Source of the DNA: Boudabousia liubingyangii | GTDB taxonomy: Bacteria > Actinomycetota > Actinomycetes > Actinomycetales > Actinomycetaceae | NCBI RefSeq assembly: GCF_001907245.1 | Contig: NZ_MQSU01000001.1 | Coordinates: 456,224-520,223 of the forward strand | Length of the DNA: 64,000 nt | Reading direction: 5' to 3' | Part shown: piece after piece, positions 28,044 to 41,357 of the stretch | Numbering within the stretch: position 1 is the stretch's first letter | How the letters are laid out: every line of letters begins with the position of its first letter | Program-made: the position numbers and the translations under genes | The notes under the pieces: generated by a model | Seen by the model: only the letters and a program-made list of their open reading frames with translations | What the model was told of the DNA's origin: nothing | Database searches by the model: none

Positions 28044-29084
28044 ATGGATGTAAAAGAAGAGTTTAGAGACATTTTCGACGGTCACCGCGCACCCACTATT
28101 GGTGACGTGGCAAAACTGGCCGGCGTTTCAATCACGACTATCTCTCGCGTGCTAAATGATCGCGGAGCGGTTAGTGCTACAACTCGAACTGCGGTGACCG
28201 ACGCGATGCGGATCCTAGGCTACCGTCCTAACAGTGTCGCTCGTTCCTTACGTCAGCAGAAGACTAATAGTGTCGCCCTGGTCTTCCCCACCATGTGCGA
28301 CGCCTACTATGTAGATCTTTCAGCAGCCGTAGAAATGTTCGTCCTGGAAGCCGGCATGCAGCCACTAACCTTTAATACCTGCTTGGACGAAGAGCACGAT
28401 AAGCGGGTCATTGATACGCTACTCAACGCCCGAGTGGACGGTGTCATCTCTGGTGCGCCCCTTGACTTCCTGCCCGATTTCCCCTTCGGTAAGCTGCCCT
28501 TGGTCACCATGTCGCAGCCCCAAATGGACCCCGGAATCCCAAATATTCAGTGTGACAACACGGAATCTGGCGCCCGGGCAGCGAAGCACTTTGCCCAAAC
28601 TGGCAGTAAACAAGCCCTGATTCTTCGTCCTATCGGAACTGACCAAGATCCCCGCCGGAAGGGTTTCCAGCTGGGTGCCAAACTAGAGGATTTACCAATC
28701 CGAGAACTGGTTATTGCCCATAACATCAGTCCGCAAGACCTAGAAAAAGAGATTGCCCAGCAGTTGGATCGACTGCACGAAGAAACCCCTATCGATGCAA
28801 TCTTTACCACGGCGGACTTCTTTGCCCCCATGATCCTCAAGTGGGCAAAGGACCGGAACCTAGAAGTCCCCGAAGATCTACAGGTCATTGGCTTTGATGG
28901 GGCGTCTTTTACCCAGCAGATGATGCCACAGCTTAGTACCTTCCGTCAGCCCTATGAAGAGCTAGCCAAGCGTGCAGTTAAAGCACTAACGCAACTAATT
29001 CAGGGGGAAGAAGTAAGTGTAGATACGGCACCGGCAGCGGTTTTTGTCCCGCGCAAAACCACCCGCGAAGTACCCGAAAAGTAA
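28044..29084 (+). CDS. LacI-family transcriptional regulator (copy 1)
   Basis: A 346-residue regulator. The helix-turn-helix (about 17-37) and hinge read VAKLAGVSITTISRVLND and AMRILGYRPNSVARSL. A periplasmic-binding-like effector domain (75-346) follows with an intact ribose/galactose-type fold. The effector is not evident and no sugar uptake genes are adjacent. ATG 28044 lies inside the palindrome TTACATGGATGTAA (28040-28053), so binding there could also affect its own translation start. It resembles the regulator at 40320, and the two flank the exporter region. Confidence 0.9.
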   Translation: MDVKEEFRDIFDGHRAPTIGDVAKLAGVSITTISRVLNDRGAVSATTRTAVTDAMRILGYRPNSVARSLRQQKTNSVALVFPTMCDAYYVDLSAAVEMFVLEAGMQPLTFNTCLDEEHDKRVIDTLLNARVDGVISGAPLDFLPDFPFGKLPLVTMSQPQMDPGIPNIQCDNTESGARAAKHFAQTGSKQALILRPIGTDQDPRRKGFQLGAKLEDLPIRELVIAHNISPQDLEKEIAQQLDRLHEETPIDAIFTTADFFAPMILKWAKDRNLEVPEDLQVIGFDGASFTQQMMPQLSTFRQPYEELAKRAVKALTQLIQGEEVSVDTAPAAVFVPRKTTREVPEK

Positions 29085-29836: not shown

Positions 29837-31900
29837 ATGTTTAACTCTAAGAATTCCTCCACCCCACAGCCTACTTCCGCAGGCGCACTGGCTGGAAACT
29901 TTTTGGCTGAAAACTATTCGGCTGACAACAATTTGGGTGACAACTATTCGGCTGCCAACTATTTAACGGACGGCTACCTAGCGCCCGAATCCGCGCAGGC
30001 CATCAAGTCCAGCTCTACCTATTACGAGGAAGCTCAGGCCCTAAATATTCCCGTCCCCCCGGTAGCGGGCGAACCTAACTGGGGCCCGCTTTACTCGCAG
30101 ACCTTCGACCTGACGGACCCGGGCACCCTGGATACCCGGAAGAAAGTACTGGTCCACACCGGTAAGCAAAGCTGGAAACGCTTCCTCGGCAACCTGCTCT
30201 ACGGGTTCGTCCAGTACGGCTCCACCAGCCTGCTGCCGATTACTGCCGGGTACCTGCTGGATCAGCTGATCATTCACGGCCTCAGTAAGGCCCTGTGGTT
30301 ACCGACCCTGTACCTGCTGCTCAATATTTTGGTGGCCAGTACGCTTTACGGTTTCATGCAGATGATCACGCTGATTACTTCAGAGCGGGCCTGCTTTGAC
30401 GATATTGACCGGACTGCCTCCCGTTCGGTCACTAACGGGCATGCCATCAGCCAAGAGATCAGTTCCGGTGACGTGGTCCAAACTGTCGAAACCGATGCTT
30501 ATAACCTGGCGATGTTCTATGAGAGTAGCGCCCATACCCTCTCGGCCCTGCTAGTGGCCCTTGGGGTTTGTTGGTACATGTTCTCTATCAACATCCCTAT
30601 GGGCCTGGCGGTCCTGCTTTCAATCCCACTATTCTCTGGGATTTCCAGCCTGATCTCTAAGCCGCTACATAAGCGCATCGATGCCCGCCGAACCGAAAGT
30701 GGCACCCTGACCACCGTCGCTAATGACGCGGTCATGGGCCTACGCATCCTGCGCGGCCTAGGGGCAGAAAGTCGCTACCTGGCCCGCTACGAAAAGCAGT
30801 CTGAGCGCCTGCGCGATACCGGCATTGCCATGGCCACTTTAAACTCGCTAAGCGCGGTAATGCGTCAGGCCTCCCCCGCGATCGTCACCGCGATCATCCT
30901 GGGGATCGGTAGTGCCGAAATCTACGCTGGCCGCCTAGAACCCGGCCAACTGGTCGCCTTCTTTGGGCTCACCGGCATTATCAACACCTTCATGATGCGC
31001 CTAAGCTGGCTCATCATCATTGGCCCCAAGGCGTGGGTCTCAGCCCGGAAGATTGCCGCCCTAAATGCGGTCCCCCGCAAACTGAACGATAACGCGGACT
31101 CGGAAGCCCCCTCGGAACCCTATGGGGAACTGGCCGACCCGATCTCTGGCGCCCAGGCGCCCGCCGGGAAACTAACCGCCCTGGTCTGTGCCGAACCGGA
31201 CCACAGCGCGCAGGTAGCTAAACGTTTCGCCCGCCTAGACGAGCACACTCCCGCCACCCTAAACGGGCAGCCGCTAACGGAAATGCCACTCAAGTGGGTG
31301 CGCACCAACCTCCTGTACTCACACGGGGAAGCCGGGCTTTTCGCCGGAACCCTGCGGGAAGGCCTACTGGGACGCAAAGCCAGAGCCGCTAAGCCGCTCA
31401 GCCCGGGTGAACTGCTGGCCTGGAATACCCTGCAAAACCGGCTGGATGACAATCAGTTCAAACTCCAAGACCAGCAGCGGAAGGACCTGGACGATAAGCT
31501 CCTAGGCGCCCTAAAAGCTGCGGCCTGCGCGGACGTCATGGGCTCCCTACAACTGGGCCTAGACGGCCTGATCACCGAAAAGGGACGTAATCTTTCTGGT
31601 GGCCAACGCCAACGCGTCTCCCTAGCGCGCGCCCTGGCCCAGCAGAGCCCCAACCTGATCCTGGTGGAGCCCACCAGCGCCCTCGATGCGAATACCGAAA
31701 ACCAGGTCGCCGAGGACCTTAAAGCGCACCGAAACGGCAAAACCACCATTATTGCGACCGCCTCCCCGCTGGTCTTGCACCACACGGACCACGTGATCTT
31801 CCTAGGCCCCGACGGGCAGGTTCAAGACACGGGCACGCACCATGAACTATTCCAACGAAACTCCGCCTACCGGGCCCTAACCGGAAGGGGAAACGCATGA
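29837..31900 (+). CDS. ABC exporter half-transporter A1 with degenerate nucleotide site
   Basis: A 687-residue membrane-ABC fusion. A long polar N-terminus (1-110) includes a five-residue repeat, six membrane helices follow (about 115-400), and an ATPase domain ends the protein. In that domain LSGGQRQR is perfect (586-593), but Walker A is absent (a VCAEPDHSAQ stretch lies where GxxGxGKS should be), the Q-loop Gln is missing (SHGEAGLF), the Walker B Asp is Val610 (LILVEP, Glu611 kept) and the H-loop His is Ser643. It cannot bind ATP normally and must pair with the overlapping B1 subunit (ATGA at 31897-31900). Substrate unknown. It is paralogous to the gene at 36497. Confidence 0.88.
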   Translation: MFNSKNSSTPQPTSAGALAGNFLAENYSADNNLGDNYSAANYLTDGYLAPESAQAIKSSSTYYEEAQALNIPVPPVAGEPNWGPLYSQTFDLTDPGTLDTRKKVLVHTGKQSWKRFLGNLLYGFVQYGSTSLLPITAGYLLDQLIIHGLSKALWLPTLYLLLNILVASTLYGFMQMITLITSERACFDDIDRTASRSVTNGHAISQEISSGDVVQTVETDAYNLAMFYESSAHTLSALLVALGVCWYMFSINIPMGLAVLLSIPLFSGISSLISKPLHKRIDARRTESGTLTTVANDAVMGLRILRGLGAESRYLARYEKQSERLRDTGIAMATLNSLSAVMRQASPAIVTAIILGIGSAEIYAGRLEPGQLVAFFGLTGIINTFMMRLSWLIIIGPKAWVSARKIAALNAVPRKLNDNADSEAPSEPYGELADPISGAQAPAGKLTALVCAEPDHSAQVAKRFARLDEHTPATLNGQPLTEMPLKWVRTNLLYSHGEAGLFAGTLREGLLGRKARAAKPLSPGELLAWNTLQNRLDDNQFKLQDQQRKDLDDKLLGALKAAACADVMGSLQLGLDGLITEKGRNLSGGQRQRVSLARALAQQSPNLILVEPTSALDANTENQVAEDLKAHRNGKTTIIATASPLVLHHTDHVIFLGPDGQVQDTGTHHELFQRNSAYRALTGRGNA
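29890..29964 (+). repeat. Five tandem 15-base repeats inside exporter A1
   Basis: Five units beginning GGCTG(G/A/C)(A/C)AACT (the fourth begins GGGTG) lie end to end at 29890, 29905, 29920, 29935 and 29950. They encode a five-residue repeat of the pattern A-x-N-(Y/F/N)-x near the N-terminus. The period is a multiple of three, so copy-number changes would keep the frame. Confidence 0.85.
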
Positions 31901-33627
31901 AACTCCCACTAGCTAACACTCGCGATACGTGGCGCGGCGCCGCGAAGATCGCCAAAACCAACTGGAAAATCCTCTCCGTCACCACCGTGGCGCAACTGGC
32001 CGCCGCCGGGGCGGCCGTCGCCATCCCCTTCCTGGTCGGTAAGCTCCTAGACCAGATCACTCACGGGACTAACAGTGCACAGGTGACCACCTATATTTGG
32101 GCCTTCGCGGCCCTAGTGCTGATTCAACTGGTCTGTACTTTTGTGGGCGAGTACGCCGGGCAGATTTTCGGCGAGCGCTCCTTCCATACGCTGCGCACCA
32201 ACCTGATGCGTGACCTGCTCAAACTGCCCCTAGGCACGGTTGAAAACGCGGGCACCGGTGACATGCTGGGACGCATCACGAAGGATATTGACCGGATTGA
32301 CTTCTTCTTCCGCCGCGGCCTAGGGGCCATGCTGTCCCTGCTGGCCACGGTGATCGTCACCTACGTGCTGGCCTTCTGGACCTCACCCCTGCTGGCGCCG
32401 GTCCTGTTCCTGCCGCTGCTGGGGATGTGGCCACTGGGACGCTGGTACTTCCCCAAGGCGATTCCTGCCTACCAGGCGGGCAGTGCCATGTGGGCGGAAG
32501 TAAACGGGCAGATCTCAGAGAACGCCGAACAGGCCGAGCACTTAGAATCCCTGGGCCTAGTGCCCCTGCGGAATCGCCGTCTACGCCATAGCCTGACCAC
32601 TATTTTCAATAACGAGCGTTACACGGCTTGGCTACGCTTTTGGCTGCTGGGCGTCACCCAGTTGAACGTGCTGTTCCCGCTGTTGGCGGTGATTGGCTGG
32701 GGTGGCTACCTGAAGAGTCACGGGCTGGTCAGCACCGGGGAACTGACCACGATCTTCCTGTACGTGTTGACCCTGCGTTACCCGATTGACGAGTCCACCT
32801 TTTGGATTGACCAAATCCAGTACGCGCAGACTTCCCTCTCCCGCATTTTGGGGGTGGGGACGGTCCCCGCGGACCGCGCTCCCAGCGTTACTTCCGTGAC
32901 TGGGAAAGCCTGGGAGATGCAAGATTTGCGCTTCCGGTACGGTAACGGCCCGGAGGTCTTAAAGGGTCTGGACCTGCGCCTGGAACCGGGTGAGACCCTG
33001 GCGATTGTGGGTACTTCCGGGGCGGGTAAGTCCACCTTGGCGCGCCTGCTGGCGGGCATTGACCTGCCCACGGGCGGCACCTTGACGGTTGGGGATGTGG
33101 CAATTGGCGATTTGGCCGAGGACGCCCTGCACAAGCAGGTGGCCCTACTGACCCAGGAGCACCACATTTTTGACGCAACCCTAGCGCAGAACCTCCAGTT
33201 GGCTGCCCCGGATGCCACCGAGGAGGAGCTAATGTCAGCCTTGGAAGCAGTGGGAGCGACCTGGGTGCGGGATCTGCCTGACGGTTTAGAAACGAACCTG
33301 GGGGCTTCCCAGGTGCACTTGTCTCCCAGTCAGGCCCAGCAGGTCGCTTTAGCGCGCCTAGTGTTGATGGATCCACATACGCTGATTTTGGATGAGGCGA
33401 CCTCCATGATGGACCCGAATAGTGCACGCGATATTGAACACGCTCTAGGGCAGGTACTGCAGGGACGGACCGTAGTGATGATCGCGCACCGCCTATTTAC
33501 CGCCCAGGACGCGGACCGGATTTGTGTCATGGAGGATGGGCAGATTGCCGAACTAGGCACCCATGATGAGCTGGTCGCCGCCGGAGGCCGCTACGCGCAC
33601 CTGTGGGAAGCGTGGACCGCACAGTAA
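31897..33627 (+). CDS. ABC exporter half-transporter B1 with degenerate signature
   Basis: A membrane-ABC fusion of 576 residues with six helices (about 25-320) and an ATPase domain (about 335-576). Walker A GTSGAGKST (372-380), Q-loop Gln420, Walker B LILDE (Asp499, Glu500) and H-loop His531 are intact. The signature is LSPSQAQQ (475-482) in place of LSGGQ. Together with A1 it can form one composite ATPase site (its own Walker motifs plus the LSGGQ of A1), while the opposite site is dead. The start overlaps A1 by four bases. Confidence 0.9.
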   Translation: MKLPLANTRDTWRGAAKIAKTNWKILSVTTVAQLAAAGAAVAIPFLVGKLLDQITHGTNSAQVTTYIWAFAALVLIQLVCTFVGEYAGQIFGERSFHTLRTNLMRDLLKLPLGTVENAGTGDMLGRITKDIDRIDFFFRRGLGAMLSLLATVIVTYVLAFWTSPLLAPVLFLPLLGMWPLGRWYFPKAIPAYQAGSAMWAEVNGQISENAEQAEHLESLGLVPLRNRRLRHSLTTIFNNERYTAWLRFWLLGVTQLNVLFPLLAVIGWGGYLKSHGLVSTGELTTIFLYVLTLRYPIDESTFWIDQIQYAQTSLSRILGVGTVPADRAPSVTSVTGKAWEMQDLRFRYGNGPEVLKGLDLRLEPGETLAIVGTSGAGKSTLARLLAGIDLPTGGTLTVGDVAIGDLAEDALHKQVALLTQEHHIFDATLAQNLQLAAPDATEEELMSALEAVGATWVRDLPDGLETNLGASQVHLSPSQAQQVALARLVLMDPHTLILDEATSMMDPNSARDIEHALGQVLQGRTVVMIAHRLFTAQDADRICVMEDGQIAELGTHDELVAAGGRYAHLWEAWTAQ

Positions 33628-33628
33628 T

Positions 33629-33657
33629 TTGACATTAAAACCTGCCGGAAGTATTTT
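33629..33657 (+). promoter_or_regulatory. Promoter of the peptide-ABC cassette
   Basis: TTGACA (33629-33634, perfect -35), a 17-base spacer and TATTTT (33652-33657) lie immediately after the B1 stop. Transcription would begin near 33664, before GGAGG (33672-33676) and ATG 33683. This gives the cassette its own start, independent of the exporter operon. Confidence 0.7.
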
Positions 33658-33682
33658 CCCCTTATCCGCCTGGAGGTCAAAG

Positions 33683-33865
33683 ATGACATTGAAAAAAGTT
33701 AGGAATTCAAATTCCTATAGAGGTCCAATAGAGTCTAGATCCGCCAGAATGCTTCGAAGAATTATTCTCGCGATACTATCGCTAGGTTTTATAGTTGCAA
33801 TACCATCAGCTTTTGCCGGAACAACTGTAAGGCCTGATAACCGCAATTCAATCTCAAAGAAATGA
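33683..33865 (+). CDS. Small secreted peptide precursor
   Basis: A 60-residue protein with GGAGG seven bases before ATG 33683. Residues 1-26 are polar and basic with RR at 25-26, residues 27-42 form a hydrophobic core, and SAFA followed by Gly fits signal peptidase I cleavage after Ala45. That would release a 15-residue basic peptide (46-60, starting GTTVR and ending SKK) with no cysteine. Such a peptide could be a signal, bacteriocin or pilus/wall ligand; I do not recognise it. Its stop overlaps an upstream ATG of the ABC ATPase gene. Base composition is AT-richer than the exporters. Confidence 0.6.
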   Translation: MTLKKVRNSNSYRGPIESRSARMLRRIILAILSLGFIVAIPSAFAGTTVRPDNRNSISKK

Positions 33866-33873
33866 GGTTCGTG

Positions 33874-34650
33874 ATGACCTCAAAGCTAACATTATCTGAG
33901 GTTTCCTTCGCGTACGGACGCAACCAACCAGCCTTAAAATCCATCTCTTTCAAAAGCGATCAAGAATTTATTGGCATACTGGGACCGAATGGGTCAGGTA
34001 AAACCACCCTTTTACGTTTACTAGCTGGAATCACCCAACCCACTTCAGGGGAAATCCGTTACCTAGATAAACCACTAAAAACCAGACAAGACCGTTCTGA
34101 CTATCAACAACATGTTGGCTACCTACCCCAAAACCCCTATTGGCCCGGGGAAACCACAGTCAAAACATTCCTTACCTATTTTGCTGCACTTAGAGACGTA
34201 CCTAAAACCTCCCAAACTGAACGCGTAACCCAAGTACTATCCCAAACAAACTGTCTGAACTTAATCACGCGGCCCCTAAAATCACTGTCCGGTGGGGAAC
34301 AAAAAAGAATCTTTCTAGCCCAATCACTACTCACAAACCCAGAAATCCTAATTTTAGATGAACCCACCGTAGCTTTAGACCCCCAACAACGAATTGCCTT
34401 CCGGGACCTAATAAAAACCCACGCAAACGGAAAAACCATCTTCTGGTCCACCCATATAGTCGAAGACTTACGCTACCTAGCCGATCGCATACTGATCATC
34501 CAAAACGGCCAAATAATCTGGCACAACACTACCCAAGAGTTAATCAATTTGGGTCAAAAAGCTGAAAACCTGAATCCTGACGCCTCTGACTTAGAAAGAG
34601 GCTTCCTTCACGTCATTGAAAGTAACCACCCCCATGCCCCGCAGCGTTAA
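33874..34650 (+). CDS. ABC transporter ATP-binding protein
   Basis: A 258-residue stand-alone ATPase with complete motifs: Walker A GPNGSGKTT, Q-loop YLPQNP, signature LSGGEQKR, Walker B LILDEPT and H-loop STH. It resembles the ATPases of ABC-2-type peptide or bacteriocin self-protection transporters. ATG 33874 has GAGG six bases upstream; ATG 33862 overlaps the peptide stop and is an alternative. Codon choice (many AAA, ACC, CAA) and visibly lower GC set it apart from the flanking exporters. It works with the two membrane proteins that follow. Confidence 0.88.
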   Translation: MTSKLTLSEVSFAYGRNQPALKSISFKSDQEFIGILGPNGSGKTTLLRLLAGITQPTSGEIRYLDKPLKTRQDRSDYQQHVGYLPQNPYWPGETTVKTFLTYFAALRDVPKTSQTERVTQVLSQTNCLNLITRPLKSLSGGEQKRIFLAQSLLTNPEILILDEPTVALDPQQRIAFRDLIKTHANGKTIFWSTHIVEDLRYLADRILIIQNGQIIWHNTTQELINLGQKAENLNPDASDLERGFLHVIESNHPHAPQR

Positions 34651-35845
34651 CTACCTAGGGGCCCTAATTTTTGGAATCTGGGTCGCTTTCACCGTTTTCT
34701 TTTTAATCAACGACGCCCCCATAAGTTTTGAATCCGTTGCCACCGCGACCAGCAATGTCAACACCACCACCCTAATCCCCGGGTCACTAGTGGGAGGCCT
34801 AGCAAGCTTCTACACGCTGCGACTCTGGCAGAACCCCAGTCAAGAACTAATCAAAACCCTACGCCCACAAAAACAGTTAAAAGTCCTAACCCAACCAGGA
34901 TTCCAACTGGCCACTTGAGCAATAGCAGGCTACCTGACCTCACTGGCCATCTCACTAATAATCCCCCTCTACAAAGGTTCCACACCCAGCATCAACCTGC
35001 TTAGCACCCTGATTCCCACGCTACTAATCCCCTACACGTTTGCCTGCTTTGGAAGTGCCGTAGCCACCCTAGTACCAAAACTCTTCACCCCACCACTGGT
35101 AATCGTGGCCATCTGGTACCTACACGTTCAAAAACCCCCACTTTTTCAAGGCATATTTGCCTACACAAACATTGGTCACACAATGTTAATTGACCACCAA
35201 ACCACCTACTTTAAAGTCCTACACGTTCTGGCACTATGTATTTCTGTCAGCCTAACTAGCTGCTGGCTCATTGCCGCTCTGACTGAAGTTCCCCTAAAAA
35301 ATAATCTACCCATCGGGGTAATAGCAATCGCCCTAGGAATCTTTACCATCACTACCGAACCGGAAGAATACCTTGAGCCTATGCCGCCCACGGCGTGGGC
35401 ATGCCTTAACGCCACAGACCAAACCACCAAAATCTGCACCCCGGCTGAACAAAAATACCAGCTACCCCAACTTACAACCGAACTAAACCCCCTAATTGAA
35501 CGACTCAAACCCCTAAGCCTACCCACGAAGCAACTAATCCTGGGGCCAACTAAAAACCAGCCTGATGTCCTGCTTATACCCAGCTATTTTAACCCCACTG
35601 AAGATCCAGTCGTGGCCGCCGCCCAATCCATTTCCGCTGCACTTACTTTCTGCTCCCCCTACTTCCGGGAACTGGAAACCACAGAAATGTCGGCAGAAAA
35701 AGTTGACCTCTACTACCGCTTAACTGCCTACCTAAGCAATAAAACCACGCCCGGGGCACTACACGCTACCTACCGGCCACCAGCAGTCAACGAAATCAAA
35801 ACTGAACTCCATGATTACTTTAAACACTATTGCCACGTTCGTTAA
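34634..35845 (+). pseudogene. ABC transporter membrane protein interrupted by an in-frame TGA
   Basis: One continuous frame from ATG 34634 to the stop at 35843-35845 is broken only by TGA at 34916-34918, after LAT and before AIAGYLTS. Reading through restores a membrane protein of about 403 residues with helices on both sides of the stop, so a TGG (Trp) to TGA change is the simplest cause. The C-terminal half (from about residue 230) has one helix pair and then a long soluble region of unknown fold. The start overlaps the ATPase gene by 17 bases. It is either a recent pseudogene, two pieces, or a sequence error. Confidence 0.7.
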
Positions 35846-36419
35846 AGCTCGACAAATAAAATACCTGCCACTCGCTTCCCTACTGGCCACCCTAGTGCTA
35901 TTTTCTGCCCCTAACTGGCCCACCGCCCTAACATTTCTACCCCAACGCAGCATCATCTACGCCAACCTACTGTCATTTATTTGCGGAAGCTTAATCACCC
36001 CCTACTTTCAACCCCTAAATCCAGAGTTAGAGAATCTGGCACCCATTCGCAGTTACCGAAAACTCAAACTTTCTTGGTTTTTCCTAGCCAACCTGATTTT
36101 TATTAGCCTGACCGCAAGCTTAAGTATTTTCTACTATCAATCACCGGAACTCTTATGGGTCTTTAGCAGAAACCTGCTTTTAGGAACTAGCCTCACAATC
36201 CTCTGGGCCACCCTATTTTGGCCCCGTTTTGCCTGGTTTCCAAATATCCTGCTAGGCATCCTAATGTGGCTAGGTGGCACCTATAATCAAGAAGCTAACG
36301 CGCACATTTGGGCAATCCCACTGCTACCAGCTGACAGTCTATGGGCGCTACTAGTATTTACCGTAATCCTCATGGTTTCCCTGAACGTCTACGTTTTTAC
36401 TGAACCCAAAAATGACTAA
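35811..36419 (+). CDS. Polytopic membrane protein, probable second ABC permease
   Basis: A 202-residue protein with about six hydrophobic helices and no recognised motif. It overlaps the interrupted permease by 35 bases and belongs to the same AT-richer cassette, so it is probably a second membrane component or an immunity-type protein. Start ATG 35811 lacks a strong ribosome site and is probably coupled. Function not known. Confidence 0.65.
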   Translation: MITLNTIATFVKARQIKYLPLASLLATLVLFSAPNWPTALTFLPQRSIIYANLLSFICGSLITPYFQPLNPELENLAPIRSYRKLKLSWFFLANLIFISLTASLSIFYYQSPELLWVFSRNLLLGTSLTILWATLFWPRFAWFPNILLGILMWLGGTYNQEANAHIWAIPLLPADSLWALLVFTVILMVSLNVYVFTEPKND

Positions 36420-36496: not shown

Positions 36497-38467
36497 GTGA
36501 GTCCTGAACAGTCTGTTGGTCGTGAAAAACCCATCTTCCCCGCCCCCGCCGGGTCCCCGTATATTGCCCAAGCTCAGCGTTTAAAGCTAGAGGTTCCGCC
36601 AGTGGTCCCCCAGCCACGCTTTGCCCCCAAGATTCTGGACACCCCGGAACTGGTTGAAGAGATCGGGGATAGCCCCAAGGGCATCCTGTGGCATCTGGTG
36701 AAGAAGAACCGAAAAGCCCTAGCCCTGTCCTTCATTACTGCCCTGGGTTTGCGCCTTTCTGGCCTAGCCATGCCGATTATTGTCGGTAAGATCATCGACT
36801 CCGGAATCGAAAAAGGCCTAGGCCCGCACCTGATTCCCTGGTCAGTGGCACTACTGGTAGCGATTATCCTGACCGGCATTTTCTGGTCCGTGGACCAGCT
36901 GGGTAACGTGGCCCTGAACTTCCGCAATAGCACCTACATCGGTAATGCGGTGGGTCAAAAAGCCCTCACGAACGGGATTGCCACCAGCCGCAAGGTAGGC
37001 ACCGGTGACGTGCTAACCGCCGCCACTGATGACGCCTCCAATATTGCGGGCCTGTTCGTGTTCCTGCCGGCTTTCTTTGCGGCCTGCGTGACCATTGTGA
37101 TCATCGGCTGGATTATGATCCGCTCTTCCCTGATGCTGGGGCTAATCGTCATGATCGGCATGCCCCTAGTGATCTTCTTAATCACCCGCCTAGCGGTACC
37201 CCTGAGCCGAAAAATGAAAACCGCCCAGAACTCCAGGGCCCAGCTCAACACCACCGCCAATGACGCCATCCTGGGCCTGCGCATCCTACGCGGCCTGGGC
37301 GGTGAAGATCGCTTCTGTGACACCTATCGGGAAGCCTCACAGGCCACCCGCGATAAAGGCGTCAAGGTAGTACCCCTGAACGCCACCATGCTCACGCTGC
37401 GGATCTCTGCCCCCGCAGTGTTCCAAACCCTCATCATTGCGATCGGCGCCTGGCAGGTCTACGCCGGGAACCTAAGTGCCGGCACCCTGATTGCCTTCTT
37501 CGGCATGACCACCTACCTACAGGCTGCGACCAACACGATTATTAGCGCCACCATGAACTATGTGAGCGCCAAGGTCTCTGCCGGACGCATCAGCAAGATC
37601 CTTGAAATTCCGCCCATGTTCCCCAACCCGCAGGCGGGACAGGCAGCACCAGCAGGAATCGCCGGTACCACCCTAGAGATTCCCAATACGCAAGTGAGCG
37701 TAGCCCCGGGAACCTACACGGCAATTACCGGCCCAGACCTTTCCGCAGCTGACGTACACGCCCAAAACCTAGCACGACTACACCCCGGCACCACCGCCAC
37801 CCTAGGTTCAGTACCGCTAGCATCCCTACCCTTAAAGACTGTACGAAACCTAGTGACCTACAGTCATGGTGAGGCCGAAATCTTCGCCGGCTCCCTACGA
37901 CAAAACCTCCTGGGTGCAAAAGCCCAAACCCCACCCGTAATGACCGCCCAGGAAGTCATGGCTGACTACACGCTCCAAATGAGCCCCCAAAGTGAGCAGG
38001 TCCGACTACCTGACTGGCAAAACCACGATCACGACCCGCAACTATGGAAGGCCCTAGAGGCCGCCGCCTGCGCGGATATTACTTCATCCCTAGGGGACGA
38101 CCTAGATGGGATGCTGCTAGAAAAGGGACGTAACCTCTCTGGTGGGCAACGCCAGCGCCTCGCCCTCGCACGCGCCCTCGCCACCGGCGCCCCCATCCTG
38201 ATCCTAGTAGAGCCCACCAGCGCCCTGGACGCGAATACTGAAAACCGGATCGGGGAAAACCTAGCTGAATGCCGAAAAGGTAAAACCACGGTCCTCATCA
38301 GTTCCTCCCCGCTCCTGCTGCAACACGCAGACCGGGTGATTGTCCTAGACCGGGAAGGTAAGTACCTAGGTGCCGGCACGCACCACGAACTAATGGCAGC
38401 CCCGGCAGGTGATGCCGCTGGCGACACTTACCGTCAGCTAATGGCACGGGCAGGTGAAAACGTATGA
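36497..38467 (+). CDS. ABC exporter half-transporter A2 with degenerate nucleotide site
   Basis: A 656-residue paralogue of A1. It shares the six-helix membrane domain, including near-identical stretches such as LGLRILRGLG and AFFG. The ATPase domain keeps LSGGQRQR (547-554) but lacks Walker A (TGPDLSAADVHAQ in its place), the Q-loop Gln (SHGEAEIF), the Walker B Asp (Val571 before Glu572) and the H-loop His (ISSSPL). It lacks the long repeat-bearing N-terminus of A1. It overlaps B2 by four bases. The same set of losses in both A subunits means they predate the duplication. Confidence 0.88.
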   Translation: MSPEQSVGREKPIFPAPAGSPYIAQAQRLKLEVPPVVPQPRFAPKILDTPELVEEIGDSPKGILWHLVKKNRKALALSFITALGLRLSGLAMPIIVGKIIDSGIEKGLGPHLIPWSVALLVAIILTGIFWSVDQLGNVALNFRNSTYIGNAVGQKALTNGIATSRKVGTGDVLTAATDDASNIAGLFVFLPAFFAACVTIVIIGWIMIRSSLMLGLIVMIGMPLVIFLITRLAVPLSRKMKTAQNSRAQLNTTANDAILGLRILRGLGGEDRFCDTYREASQATRDKGVKVVPLNATMLTLRISAPAVFQTLIIAIGAWQVYAGNLSAGTLIAFFGMTTYLQAATNTIISATMNYVSAKVSAGRISKILEIPPMFPNPQAGQAAPAGIAGTTLEIPNTQVSVAPGTYTAITGPDLSAADVHAQNLARLHPGTTATLGSVPLASLPLKTVRNLVTYSHGEAEIFAGSLRQNLLGAKAQTPPVMTAQEVMADYTLQMSPQSEQVRLPDWQNHDHDPQLWKALEAAACADITSSLGDDLDGMLLEKGRNLSGGQRQRLALARALATGAPILILVEPTSALDANTENRIGENLAECRKGKTTVLISSSPLLLQHADRVIVLDREGKYLGAGTHHELMAAPAGDAAGDTYRQLMARAGENV

Positions 38468-40194
38468 AACTCCCCGTCGCCTCAAATACCGAAACCCGCA
38501 AAGCCTTCGGACGCCTCATCTACCAGCACCGGAAGCTCATGGGGGCCTCATTTGCGACCCAGCTTTTGGGCATTGTCTTTGCCACCGCCCTGCCGTGGCT
38601 GACCGGTAAAACCCTAGACTGGATTGCCGCCGGGCGGGATACACGCATTATCTCTTGGGCCATCACCGCCATGGTGATCCTGGTGATCATCCGAATAATC
38701 TTCAACTACATTGCCGAACTCCTTGGCGGGATCGTCGCGGAAGATATGTTCCAAACCCTACGGGACCAGGTCATCACTCAGGCCACGCACCTACCCCTAT
38801 CGGTAGTGGAAAGCTCCGGTTCGGGCGACCTACTGGGGCGCGTCACCTACGATGTGCGCCGCATCCAAGGCTTCATGACCCAGGGGTTAGTCTCCATTAT
38901 TCAGCTACTACTCACCGCGATCGTCACCTATGTGACAGCACTGCTAGTGGCGCCCTCACTAGGGTGGACGCTACTGGTCGCACTGGTTCCAATCCTGTAC
39001 ACCATGCGCTGGCACTTCTCCCACATGAGCGCCATCATCCAAGCCAATGCGGGCATGGTCGCCAATGTTTCCGGTCAGATCAGTGAAAACGCCGGCGGGG
39101 CGCGCATTATCGAAGCCCAGGGGCTAGTGCCCACGCGCGTAAAGCGGCTGCACCAAATTGGGCGCTCCATGTGGAACCTGCAGGCCACCACCGGTTACAC
39201 TCGGGCCCGCTCCATGGGTGCCGTCAACACCCTAGTGATGCTGCCACTACTGTTCACCGTGATCCTTGGGGCTCTGTTCATTCCCCGCGGTTGGGCCACC
39301 ATTGGTACGGTCACTACCGTCACCATGTTGACCCTACAGCTGCGCGCACCCCTGACCAGTGCCATGTACTGGATTACCAATATGCAGGTAGCGTGGGCGT
39401 CCATGCAGCGTATTGCCGGTATTGGGCTAGTCCCCAATGACCGGGTGACCAAAAATATTGCCCCCGCCAATAGCCAGATTGACCTAGCGGATGTCACCTT
39501 CGCTTACCGCGCTGATCATGAGGTCCTGCACGGGCTAAACCTAAGTATTAAACCCGGCGAGCGCCTAGCGATCGTGGGTACTTCCGGGGCGGGTAAATCC
39601 ACCCTGGCGCGCCTGATCGCCGGTATTGATGCCCCCACTGGTGGCTCGGTACAGATCGGCCAGGCGGAAGTTACCGAACTGCCCGAAGCGGAACTGCACC
39701 GGCAGGTCATCCTGCTCACCCAGGAGCACCATATCTTTACCACCACCCTACGGGAGAATCTGCGGCTGGCCGACCCGGCGGCCTCGGACGAAAAACTGTG
39801 GGAGGCCCTAGACCAGATCGGGGCGGAATGGGCCCACCAGCTAGCCGAGGGGCTAGATACCAAACTGGGGACCTCGGCCATGGAGCTGACCAGTGCGCAG
39901 GCGCAGCAGTTGGCCCTAGCGCGAATCCTGCTGGCCGACCCATCCACGCTGATCCTAGATGAGGCCACCTCCATGCTGGACCCGACCTCTGCCCGGACGC
40001 TAGAACGTGCCCTAGGGAAGGTGTTGGAAGGACGGACGGTCATTATGATTGCGCACCGGTTATTTACCGCTCAGGACGCGGATCGGATCTGTGTGATGGA
40101 AGATGGCCGGATCATTGAACTCGGTTCGCATGAGGAACTTCTATCCCAAAATGGGACCTATTCGGATCTATGGTCCGCTTGGCAACAAAAATAG
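38464..40194 (+). CDS. ABC exporter half-transporter B2 with degenerate signature
   Basis: This 576-residue subunit is exactly the length of B1. Walker A GTSGAGKST, Q-loop LLTQEHHIF, Walker B LILDEATSMLD and H-loop IAHRL are intact. The signature is LTSAQAQQ where LSGGQ is expected. With A2 it should form a heterodimer with one working ATPase site. The C-terminal segment HRLFTAQDADRICVMEDG is nearly identical to B1, which supports tandem duplication of the A-B pair. Confidence 0.9.
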   Translation: MKLPVASNTETRKAFGRLIYQHRKLMGASFATQLLGIVFATALPWLTGKTLDWIAAGRDTRIISWAITAMVILVIIRIIFNYIAELLGGIVAEDMFQTLRDQVITQATHLPLSVVESSGSGDLLGRVTYDVRRIQGFMTQGLVSIIQLLLTAIVTYVTALLVAPSLGWTLLVALVPILYTMRWHFSHMSAIIQANAGMVANVSGQISENAGGARIIEAQGLVPTRVKRLHQIGRSMWNLQATTGYTRARSMGAVNTLVMLPLLFTVILGALFIPRGWATIGTVTTVTMLTLQLRAPLTSAMYWITNMQVAWASMQRIAGIGLVPNDRVTKNIAPANSQIDLADVTFAYRADHEVLHGLNLSIKPGERLAIVGTSGAGKSTLARLIAGIDAPTGGSVQIGQAEVTELPEAELHRQVILLTQEHHIFTTTLRENLRLADPAASDEKLWEALDQIGAEWAHQLAEGLDTKLGTSAMELTSAQAQQLALARILLADPSTLILDEATSMLDPTSARTLERALGKVLEGRTVIMIAHRLFTAQDADRICVMEDGRIIELGSHEELLSQNGTYSDLWSAWQQK

Positions 40195-40319: not shown

Positions 40320-41357
40320 ATGGACAAAAACGGAAAAAGTTCCTCTAGGAACTCCGATGGGCAATTAACCATTACGGACGTAGCTAAACTAGCCGGAGTT
40401 TCGCCTACCACTGTGTCTCGGGTTCTTAATAACCGGGGTTACATTTCACTGCGCACTAAAGAAGCCGTTCACGACGCAATGACGCAATTGGGGTATCGTC
40501 CGAACGCACAAGCTCGTGCTTTACGAATCAAGCAAACTAACCTGATTGGGGTTCTGTTCCCCACGCTTTCTGATCCATACTATGCGGAACTCGCCAGCCA
40601 GCTGGAAGAGCGTCTAGCTGCCGCCGGCCTCAGAATGCTACTGTGCACAACCCAGAAGAACTACGACCGAGAAAAGTACTACCTAGACCTACTGGCTTCC
40701 TCTCGGGTGGATGGGATTATTACCTGTTCGCATAGTGATGCAATCTATGAGTACCAAAACTCAGCACGCGCGATTATTACGATCCAGCATCCGGTCACTA
40801 TCCCAGATATTCCCAACATTACCTGTAACAATGTTGACGCTGGCAAACAGGCTGCTAGGGCGCTACTAGCTGGTGGGGTCAAAGAAGCTCTAGTAATACA
40901 CTCATCGTTCTCGGCTAAGAATCCTCGGCACCAAGCTTTCCACGATGTGTTTAAAGAGGCTGGAATCCCTTCTCACTGCGAAGAAATCGATTTTGATGCC
41001 ACTCCAGATGAGCAACGAAATCGCATTGAAATGATTATGGAAAGCCCGATCTACCGTCAGGTCGACTCGGTCTTTGCTACCAATGACACCTATGCTTCTA
41101 TGGTTACGTCTTGGGCGATTTCGAACGGCAAAAACGTACCCGAAGACCTACAGGTAATTGGTTACGACGGTGCGCCTGCTAGCCGCAACCTGATTCCAGC
41201 TCTAACCACTCTGGTTCAGCCGTACAACGAGATTGCTTCTAACGCAGTCTTTGCTTTGATCGCGATTATGAACGATACTCCGGCGCCTTCGCAGGCTATC
41301 CCCCGAGTTACGTTCCACCCGGGCAATACCATTCGCGCCAAGGACTACTACCTGTAA
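40320..41357 (+). CDS. LacI-family transcriptional regulator (copy 2)
   Basis: A 345-residue regulator with helix-turn-helix VAKLAGVSPTTVSRVLNN, hinge LGYRPNAQARALR and a complete effector-binding domain. It belongs to the same subfamily as the regulator at 28044. No Shine-Dalgarno is visible, and TATAGA ends five bases before ATG 40320, so the mRNA may be leaderless. Neither sugar transporters nor glycosidases are nearby. Regulation of the upstream exporters is an inference from position. Confidence 0.9.
   Translation: MDKNGKSSSRNSDGQLTITDVAKLAGVSPTTVSRVLNNRGYISLRTKEAVHDAMTQLGYRPNAQARALRIKQTNLIGVLFPTLSDPYYAELASQLEERLAAAGLRMLLCTTQKNYDREKYYLDLLASSRVDGIITCSHSDAIYEYQNSARAIITIQHPVTIPDIPNITCNNVDAGKQAARALLAGGVKEALVIHSSFSAKNPRHQAFHDVFKEAGIPSHCEEIDFDATPDEQRNRIEMIMESPIYRQVDSVFATNDTYASMVTSWAISNGKNVPEDLQVIGYDGAPASRNLIPALTTLVQPYNEIASNAVFALIAIMNDTPAPSQAIPRVTFHPGNTIRAKDYYL

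What the first reader, a model, noticed from the sequence alone, without database searches (positions are those of the whole stretch)
33629..36419. AT-richer secreted-peptide/ABC cassette inserted between the exporter copies
A promoter with a perfect -35 directly follows the B1 stop and drives a 60-residue peptide precursor, a complete ATPase, an interrupted permease and a second membrane protein, all overlapping. Hand-counted 60-base rows in the cassette give 28-29 G+C, against 34 in an exporter row. Layout recalls bacteriocin or signalling-peptide loci with a self-protection transporter. The flanking exporters could process or export the same molecule. I know of no described system with this set.
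Basis: partly seen in the sequence, partly recalled or inferred. Interest (0 to 1): 0.7.

Follow-up and report, generated by a model that had tools for sequence, protein, structure and literature searches.

The report
Decayed secreted-protein and ABC-transporter cassette
This stretch is a worn-out copy of a four-gene cassette, found across actinobacteria, that pairs a small secreted protein with its own ABC transporter; it looks like a toxin with self-protection, a kind I could not find described, and here the secreted protein is cut short and the transporter carries a stop codon.

Summary
33629-36419 carries a 60-aa signal-peptide ORF, an intact ABC ATPase, a permease interrupted by one in-frame TGA, and a second membrane protein, all overlapping. 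G+C is 46.9%, the window minimum (window mean 56.6%). Among the four species held of the genus only this one has the cassette; one has the same exporter tandem with 65 bp at that site.

The ABC trio is not unique. A profile of its permease finds relatives in 41 of 213 genomes of the family and 60 of 395 of the class. In many relatives, and on two Streptomyces plasmids, an unannotated signal-peptide protein of about 110-178 aa sits directly upstream of the ATPase. The cargo is repeatedly gutted or lost while the ABC genes stay under purifying selection, as in lactococcin-972-type loci where the bacteriocin gene is lost and the ABC genes remain. The most likely reading is a Sec-secreted, bacteriocin-like protein with a dedicated ABC self-protection transporter, present here as a decaying remnant: a 15-residue mature part plus the permease stop.

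No antimicrobial activity has been shown. The 60-aa peptide has no detectable homologue. The flanking exporters have no peptidase domain, so processing by them is not supported.

The parts
33629..33657 (+). Putative promoter: TTGACA, 17 nt, TATTTT
   Evidence: 10 of 12 consensus matches, but the number of such hits in the region is at chance level
33672..33677 (+). Shine-Dalgarno site GGAGGT for the peptide ORF
   Evidence: sequence; used in the shuffle test
33683..33865 (+). 60-aa secreted peptide ORF: long n-region, Sec signal peptide ending IPSAFA (33683-33817), 15-residue mature part GTTVRPDNRNSISKK; probably a gutted precursor
   Evidence: no homologue by sequence
33862..34650 (+). ABC ATPase, intact motifs; true start is perhaps the ATG at 33874 behind GAGG
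   Evidence: Pfam ABC_tran 3.9e-33; motifs; 33-40% identity to G030/G194/G150
34634..35845 (+). ABC permease of an unnamed family: N-terminal hydrophobic segments, then a C-terminal cysteine-bearing domain from about residue 245; interrupted by a TGA at 34916-34918
34916..34918 (+). In-frame TGA at residue 95; several homologues have Trp in this column
35811..36419 (+). Second membrane protein (MP2), the third gene of the ABC module
   Evidence: family-wide profile hits with the same gene order
31897..33627 (+). Upstream flank: exporter subunit B1, not part of the cassette
   Evidence: orthologue directly next to A2 in G002
36497..38467 (+). Downstream flank: exporter subunit A2, not part of the cassette

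Best explanation
The insert is a decaying copy of a four-gene actinomycete cassette: secreted protein, ABC ATPase, permease with a cysteine-bearing C-terminal domain, small membrane protein. In working copies a signal-peptide protein of about 110-178 aa leaves by Sec and most likely acts as a bacteriocin-like toxin on neighbouring actinobacteria. The three-part ABC transporter sits in the producer's membrane and removes or keeps off the toxin (self-protection). Shown here: the gene order, the signal peptides (simple heuristic), two recurrent cargo types, repeated loss or gutting of the cargo with the ABC genes kept under purifying selection, and absence of the cassette from congeners. Inferred: toxin activity, immunity function, and that the window's 60-aa ORF descends from a full-length precursor. 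In this genome the mature part is only 15 residues and the permease has a nonsense codon, so I expect no toxin and little or no transporter activity.
For: Same ATPase-permease-MP2 order in relatives and on two Streptomyces linear plasmids, each behind a signal-peptide ORF annotated hypothetical protein. Type I cargo is one family by profile (A7); 8 of 9 full-length copies in the family lie directly before the ATPase. Type II cargo (..GCYxQWWNTAWxxKC..WVxYRG) lies before related ABC modules. On the ATPase tree the cargo-less state needs at least 5 separate changes, and the window groups with a type I, a type-I-like and a type I remnant locus plus one cargo-less locus (99/97). G137 keeps the start region and the last codons (FDY stop) of the type I gene but has lost about 375 bp in between, compared with G115. 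G105's 48-aa ORF reads as a type II gene with its middle missing (AYTDSAPTN + TYVGYRG). ABC genes between two cargo-less or gutted sister loci have dN/dS 0.24-0.36 (L100-L102) and 0.16-0.30 (L099-L095). Precedent: 27.5% of pneumococcal genomes keep scbBC without the lactococcin-972-like bacteriocin gene (PMC11796350).
Against: No activity data. G145 keeps a full-length type I gene with a collapsed ATPase/permease, which should be harmful if the transporter is the only immunity. The window peptide's mature part shows no significant similarity to the type I tail (14512 of 20000 shuffles score as high), so its descent rests on position and signal peptide only. In Streptomyces-like genomes related ABC modules lie behind a multi-membrane-span gene instead, so the ABC core is not tied to one cargo. 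The TGA could be an assembly error.
Confidence: 0.5

Rival explanations
1. The 60-aa ORF is a complete short peptide (signal or bacteriocin, 15-residue mature part) and the ABC trio its exporter or sensor.
For: Shine-Dalgarno site, signal peptide and overlap with the ATPase are not chance. A 48-aa ORF with a signal peptide and 15 mature residues lies at the same place in G105.
Against: No homologue among 213 family genomes. The G105 ORF is explained as an internal deletion of a type II gene. The transporter meant to serve the peptide is itself interrupted. The peptide gene has the most deviant codon use and lowest G+C of the genes compared. No two-component or peptide-receptor gene was seen next to it.
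Confidence: 0.12
2. The ABC trio exports or matures the secreted protein, or the two work together in envelope construction; no toxin is involved.
For: Tight operon order and frequent co-occurrence; cysteine-bearing proteins on both sides.
Against: The cargo carries its own Sec signal peptide. The ABC genes remain under purifying selection where the cargo is gone. Two unrelated-looking cargo types precede related ABC modules.
Confidence: 0.2
3. The ABC trio is a general envelope-stress or drug efflux module and the upstream secreted gene is a loosely linked neighbour.
For: Cargo-less copies are common, and Streptomyces-like copies sit behind multi-span membrane ORFs, in one case next to a sigma-70 gene.
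Against: 8 of 9 full-length type I genes in the family are immediately followed by the ATPase, and the same four-gene block recurs on plasmids of another order.
Confidence: 0.13
4. The permease is not broken: the TGA is read through as Trp or is an assembly error, and the cassette is functional.
For: The frame is open for 308 codons after the TGA and homologues have Trp at this column.
Against: TGA is the commonest stop codon of the 21 window genes checked, so there is no sign of recoding. No reads were available. The precursor would still have only a 15-residue mature part.
Confidence: 0.15

Closest known systems
Lactococcin 972-type loci (lcn972-orf2-orf3; pneumococcal scbABC)
   Same: A small secreted structural gene directly followed by genes for a putative ABC transporter proposed as immunity; loci that lost the structural gene but kept the transporter genes (27.5% of pneumococcal genomes; PMC11796350, PMC4055356).
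   Different: No Lactococcin_972 (Pfam) or NCBIfam match in the cargo proteins scanned; three ABC genes in the order ATPase-permease-MP2; actinomycete distribution; two-cysteine tail in type I.
Lantibiotic protection transporters LanFEG
   Same: One ATPase and two membrane subunits dedicated to self-protection.
   Different: The ATPase scores 118.5 bits against a cut-off of 309.75 for the LanF-type model; the permeases match no model; the long permease has a cysteine-bearing C-terminal domain; no lanthionine enzymes were seen next to it.
Actinomyces defensin-type bacteriocins (actinomycesin, actifensin)
   Same: Secreted cysteine-bearing small proteins of actinomycetes.
   Different: Not compared by sequence here; type I and type II cargo match no Pfam family.

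Membership tests
Lactococcin 972 bacteriocin family | Lactococcin_972 domain in the structural protein (Pfam / NCBIfam models) | tested here: not met
   No match at E<=1 (Pfam) or at the limits used for NCBIfam for the type I and II proteins scanned
Lactococcin 972 bacteriocin family | Sec-type signal peptide on the structural protein | tested here: met
   Hydrophobic core, basic n-region and A-x-A-like site found by a simple heuristic; not run with a trained predictor
Lactococcin 972 bacteriocin family | Downstream integral membrane protein plus ATPase typical of the family | tested here: not met
   Order is ATPase-permease-MP2, and P0002 and P0004 match no Pfam or NCBIfam model above cut-off
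Lactococcin 972 bacteriocin family | Antimicrobial activity (lipid II binding, septum block) | not testable with these tools
   needs purified protein
LanFEG lantibiotic protection ABC transporter | ATPase reaches the curated cut-off of TIGR03740 | tested here: not met
   118.5 bits against a cut-off of 309.75
LanFEG lantibiotic protection ABC transporter | Linked lantibiotic biosynthesis genes | tested here: inconclusive
   Not seen among the ORFs next to the cassette; the neighbourhood was not scanned gene by gene with profiles
Double-glycine peptide export (C39) ABC systems | C39 peptidase domain in the exporter | tested here: not met
   A1, B1, A2, B2 show only ABC_membrane and ABC_tran as full-length family matches
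Type I cargo family defined here (profile A7) | Profile match of the window peptide | tested here: not met
   No A7 match in the window's genome at E<=0.01; tail similarity not above shuffles
ABC trio family defined here (ATPase-permease-MP2) | Homologous permease and MP2 in the same order | tested here: met
ABC trio family defined here (ATPase-permease-MP2) | Three cysteines of the permease C-terminal domain, invariant in 15 members | tested here: met
   C257, C268, C340

The most novel reading that the evidence does not exclude
A widespread, unnamed class of Sec-secreted actinomycete bacteriocins (type I with a C..PVPDxC tail, type II with GCYxQWWNTAWxxKC), each guarded by a three-part ABC transporter whose permease has a cysteine-bearing outer domain. 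Loci that lose the toxin keep the transporter as immunity against neighbours, and the window holds the last stage of this decay.
Probability: 0.42. Interest if true: 0.72.

Novelty: new variant of a known kind. Interest (0 to 1): 0.52.

Why it matters
If the secreted proteins are toxins, the cassette would be a large, unannotated source of narrow-spectrum antibacterial proteins in actinobacteria, with the immunity transporter encoded next to each. The cargo-less loci would then be natural immunity-only strains, which makes the prediction easy to test. Neither the two cargo families nor the permease and MP2 reach the cut-off of any Pfam or NCBIfam model scanned, and on the plasmids they are labelled hypothetical protein.

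Tried and rejected
(1) RPDNRNSIS of the window peptide as a relic of the PDxC tail: a position-specific score against shuffles gave no support, so I dropped it. (2) Homologues of the 60-aa peptide: best hit E 0.0026 in G227 lies antisense to real ORFs and none of the weak-hit loci carries the ABC genes. (3) Scan of genome contigs with the ATPase returned only generic ABC ATPases. (4) Phage records, viral contigs and plasmids: no cargo match in phages or viral contigs (the profile version of the viral scan could not be run), none for the window permease in plasmids, none for a type II protein in plasmids. (5) Solved structures: no relative of type I. (6) PADLOC: nothing credible. (7) Rfam: nothing in the window. 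(9) Direct repeats at the two ends of the insert as a mobility footprint: none of 7 nt or more between the end regions.

Full report
What is in the sequence. The window is G000:C1:456224-520223 of a 2.03-Mb, 10-contig genome. Between exporter genes B1 (ends 33627) and A2 (starts 36497) lie four overlapping ORFs on the + strand: a 60-aa signal-peptide ORF (33683-33865), an ABC ATPase (33862-34650), a permease frame of 403 codons with one internal TGA (34634-35845) and a 202-aa membrane protein, MP2 (35811-36419). The combination of Shine-Dalgarno site, 60-codon ORF and hydrophobic N-terminus did not arise in 5000 dinucleotide shuffles. The promoter-like TTGACA-17-TATTTT is well placed, but such hits are at chance frequency in the region.

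Composition. The cassette has 46.9% G+C against 56.6% for the window and is its lowest 2.8-kb stretch. Its ABC genes use AGA, ATA, AAA and CAA far more than the rest, and the peptide gene is lower still (38%) and lacks the strong C-over-G skew of the ABC genes.

Presence and absence. The permease occurs only in this species among the four held of the genus. G002 has orthologues of A1, B1, A2 and B2 in the same order beside the same nrdE and S4-domain genes (41, 55, 49 and 59% identity for the four exporters), with 65 bp instead of 2869 bp between B1 and A2. Insertion in this lineage is the simplest reading. In other genomes the cassette sits elsewhere: in G150 between rpoC and rpsL, in G030 behind a helicase gene whose C-terminus looks PcrA-like.

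Relatives. Single-sequence search found three distant relatives in the family, all with ATPase, permease and MP2 in the same order. Profiles built from them reached further. A 15-member permease profile matches 41 of 213 family genomes and 60 of 395 class genomes at E<=0.001. The permease has three cysteines invariant in all 15 members, in the C-terminal region that lies beyond the last hydrophobic segment. No Pfam, NCBIfam or PADLOC model fits the permease or MP2 above its cut-off.

The cargo. Directly upstream of the ATPase many relatives encode a signal-peptide protein. Type I (about 150-178 aa) shares WGxLxxxYxG, DxxxDGNxVYG and a tail CxQxGxPVPDSCS...Y (alignment A7). A profile finds nine full-length copies in the family; eight are followed at once by the ATPase and the ninth, in G145, by a collapsed remnant of it. 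Type II (about 108-113 aa) has a GCYxQWWNTAWxxKC motif and, in the family members, a WVxYRG end. Two Streptomyces linear plasmids (NZ_CP085174.1, NZ_CP070262.1) carry the complete type I four-gene block, three of the genes annotated as hypothetical proteins and one as an ATP-binding cassette protein. Some loci, mostly in Streptomyces-like genomes, have a multi-span membrane ORF there instead.

Decay of the cargo. In several loci the cargo gene is missing or gutted. On the ATPase tree the cargo-less state requires at least five changes and gutted type II genes at least two. DNA alignment of G115 and G137 shows an internal deletion of roughly 375 bp in G137 that leaves the start region and the last codons of the gene. 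G105 has a 48-aa ORF whose sequence joins the first and last residues of a type II mature protein. Between sister loci that both lack an intact cargo the ABC genes still show dN/dS of 0.24-0.36 (L100-L102) and 0.16-0.30 (L099-L095). So the transporter is useful without the cargo, as expected for immunity and less so for a dedicated exporter.

The window copy. Its ATPase groups with those of G194 (type I), G290 (type-I-like), G150 (type I remnant) and G030 (no cargo) with support 99/97. Its own peptide has a signal peptide and then 15 residues. It fits the gutted class by layout, but its sequence shows no significant link to the type I tail and has no homologue, so this step is inferred. The TGA falls in a column where several relatives have Trp; with a single lesion and 308 open codons behind it, the permease was probably broken recently, unless it is an assembly error.

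Mechanism. I propose that the secreted protein is exported by Sec and acts on related bacteria, and that the ABC trio protects the producer. The organisation and the loss of the structural gene with retention of the transporter genes match what is reported for lactococcin-972-type loci (PMC11796350, PMC4055356), but the defining domain of that family is not found, so this works like, and is not a member of, that family. Toxicity and immunity are untested. The main point against is G145, where a type I gene persists without an intact transporter.

Verdict. The window copy itself is a relic; the interest lies in the intact relatives.

Noticed in passing
window 29837-33627 and 36497-40194: Both flanking exporter pairs have an A subunit without Walker A and with VE in place of DE at Walker B, and a B subunit without LSGGQ, so each heterodimer keeps a single composite ATP site. 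A LacI-type regulator gene lies near each pair (28044-29084, 40320-41357).
   Followed up: partly
L024 4505-7560 (G150): The ABC cassette is inserted between rpoC and rpsL.
   Followed up: no
L126 1007-1075 and 2540-2610 (G145): Near-identical palindromic repeats flank the type I gene whose ABC genes have collapsed.
   Followed up: no
L058, L063, L065, L066, L067: The same ABC core occurs behind a multi-span membrane ORF, in L058 next to a sigma-70-like gene; a separate regulated variant.
   Followed up: no
G226 (L115) and G131 (L117): Other permease copies with in-frame stops (1 TAG and 2 TAG), so decay of the transporter also recurs.
   Followed up: no
L025 8640-8704 (G002): The 65-bp B1-A2 gap of G002 holds an inverted repeat CGGGAGGAA...TTCCTCCCG.
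   Followed up: no
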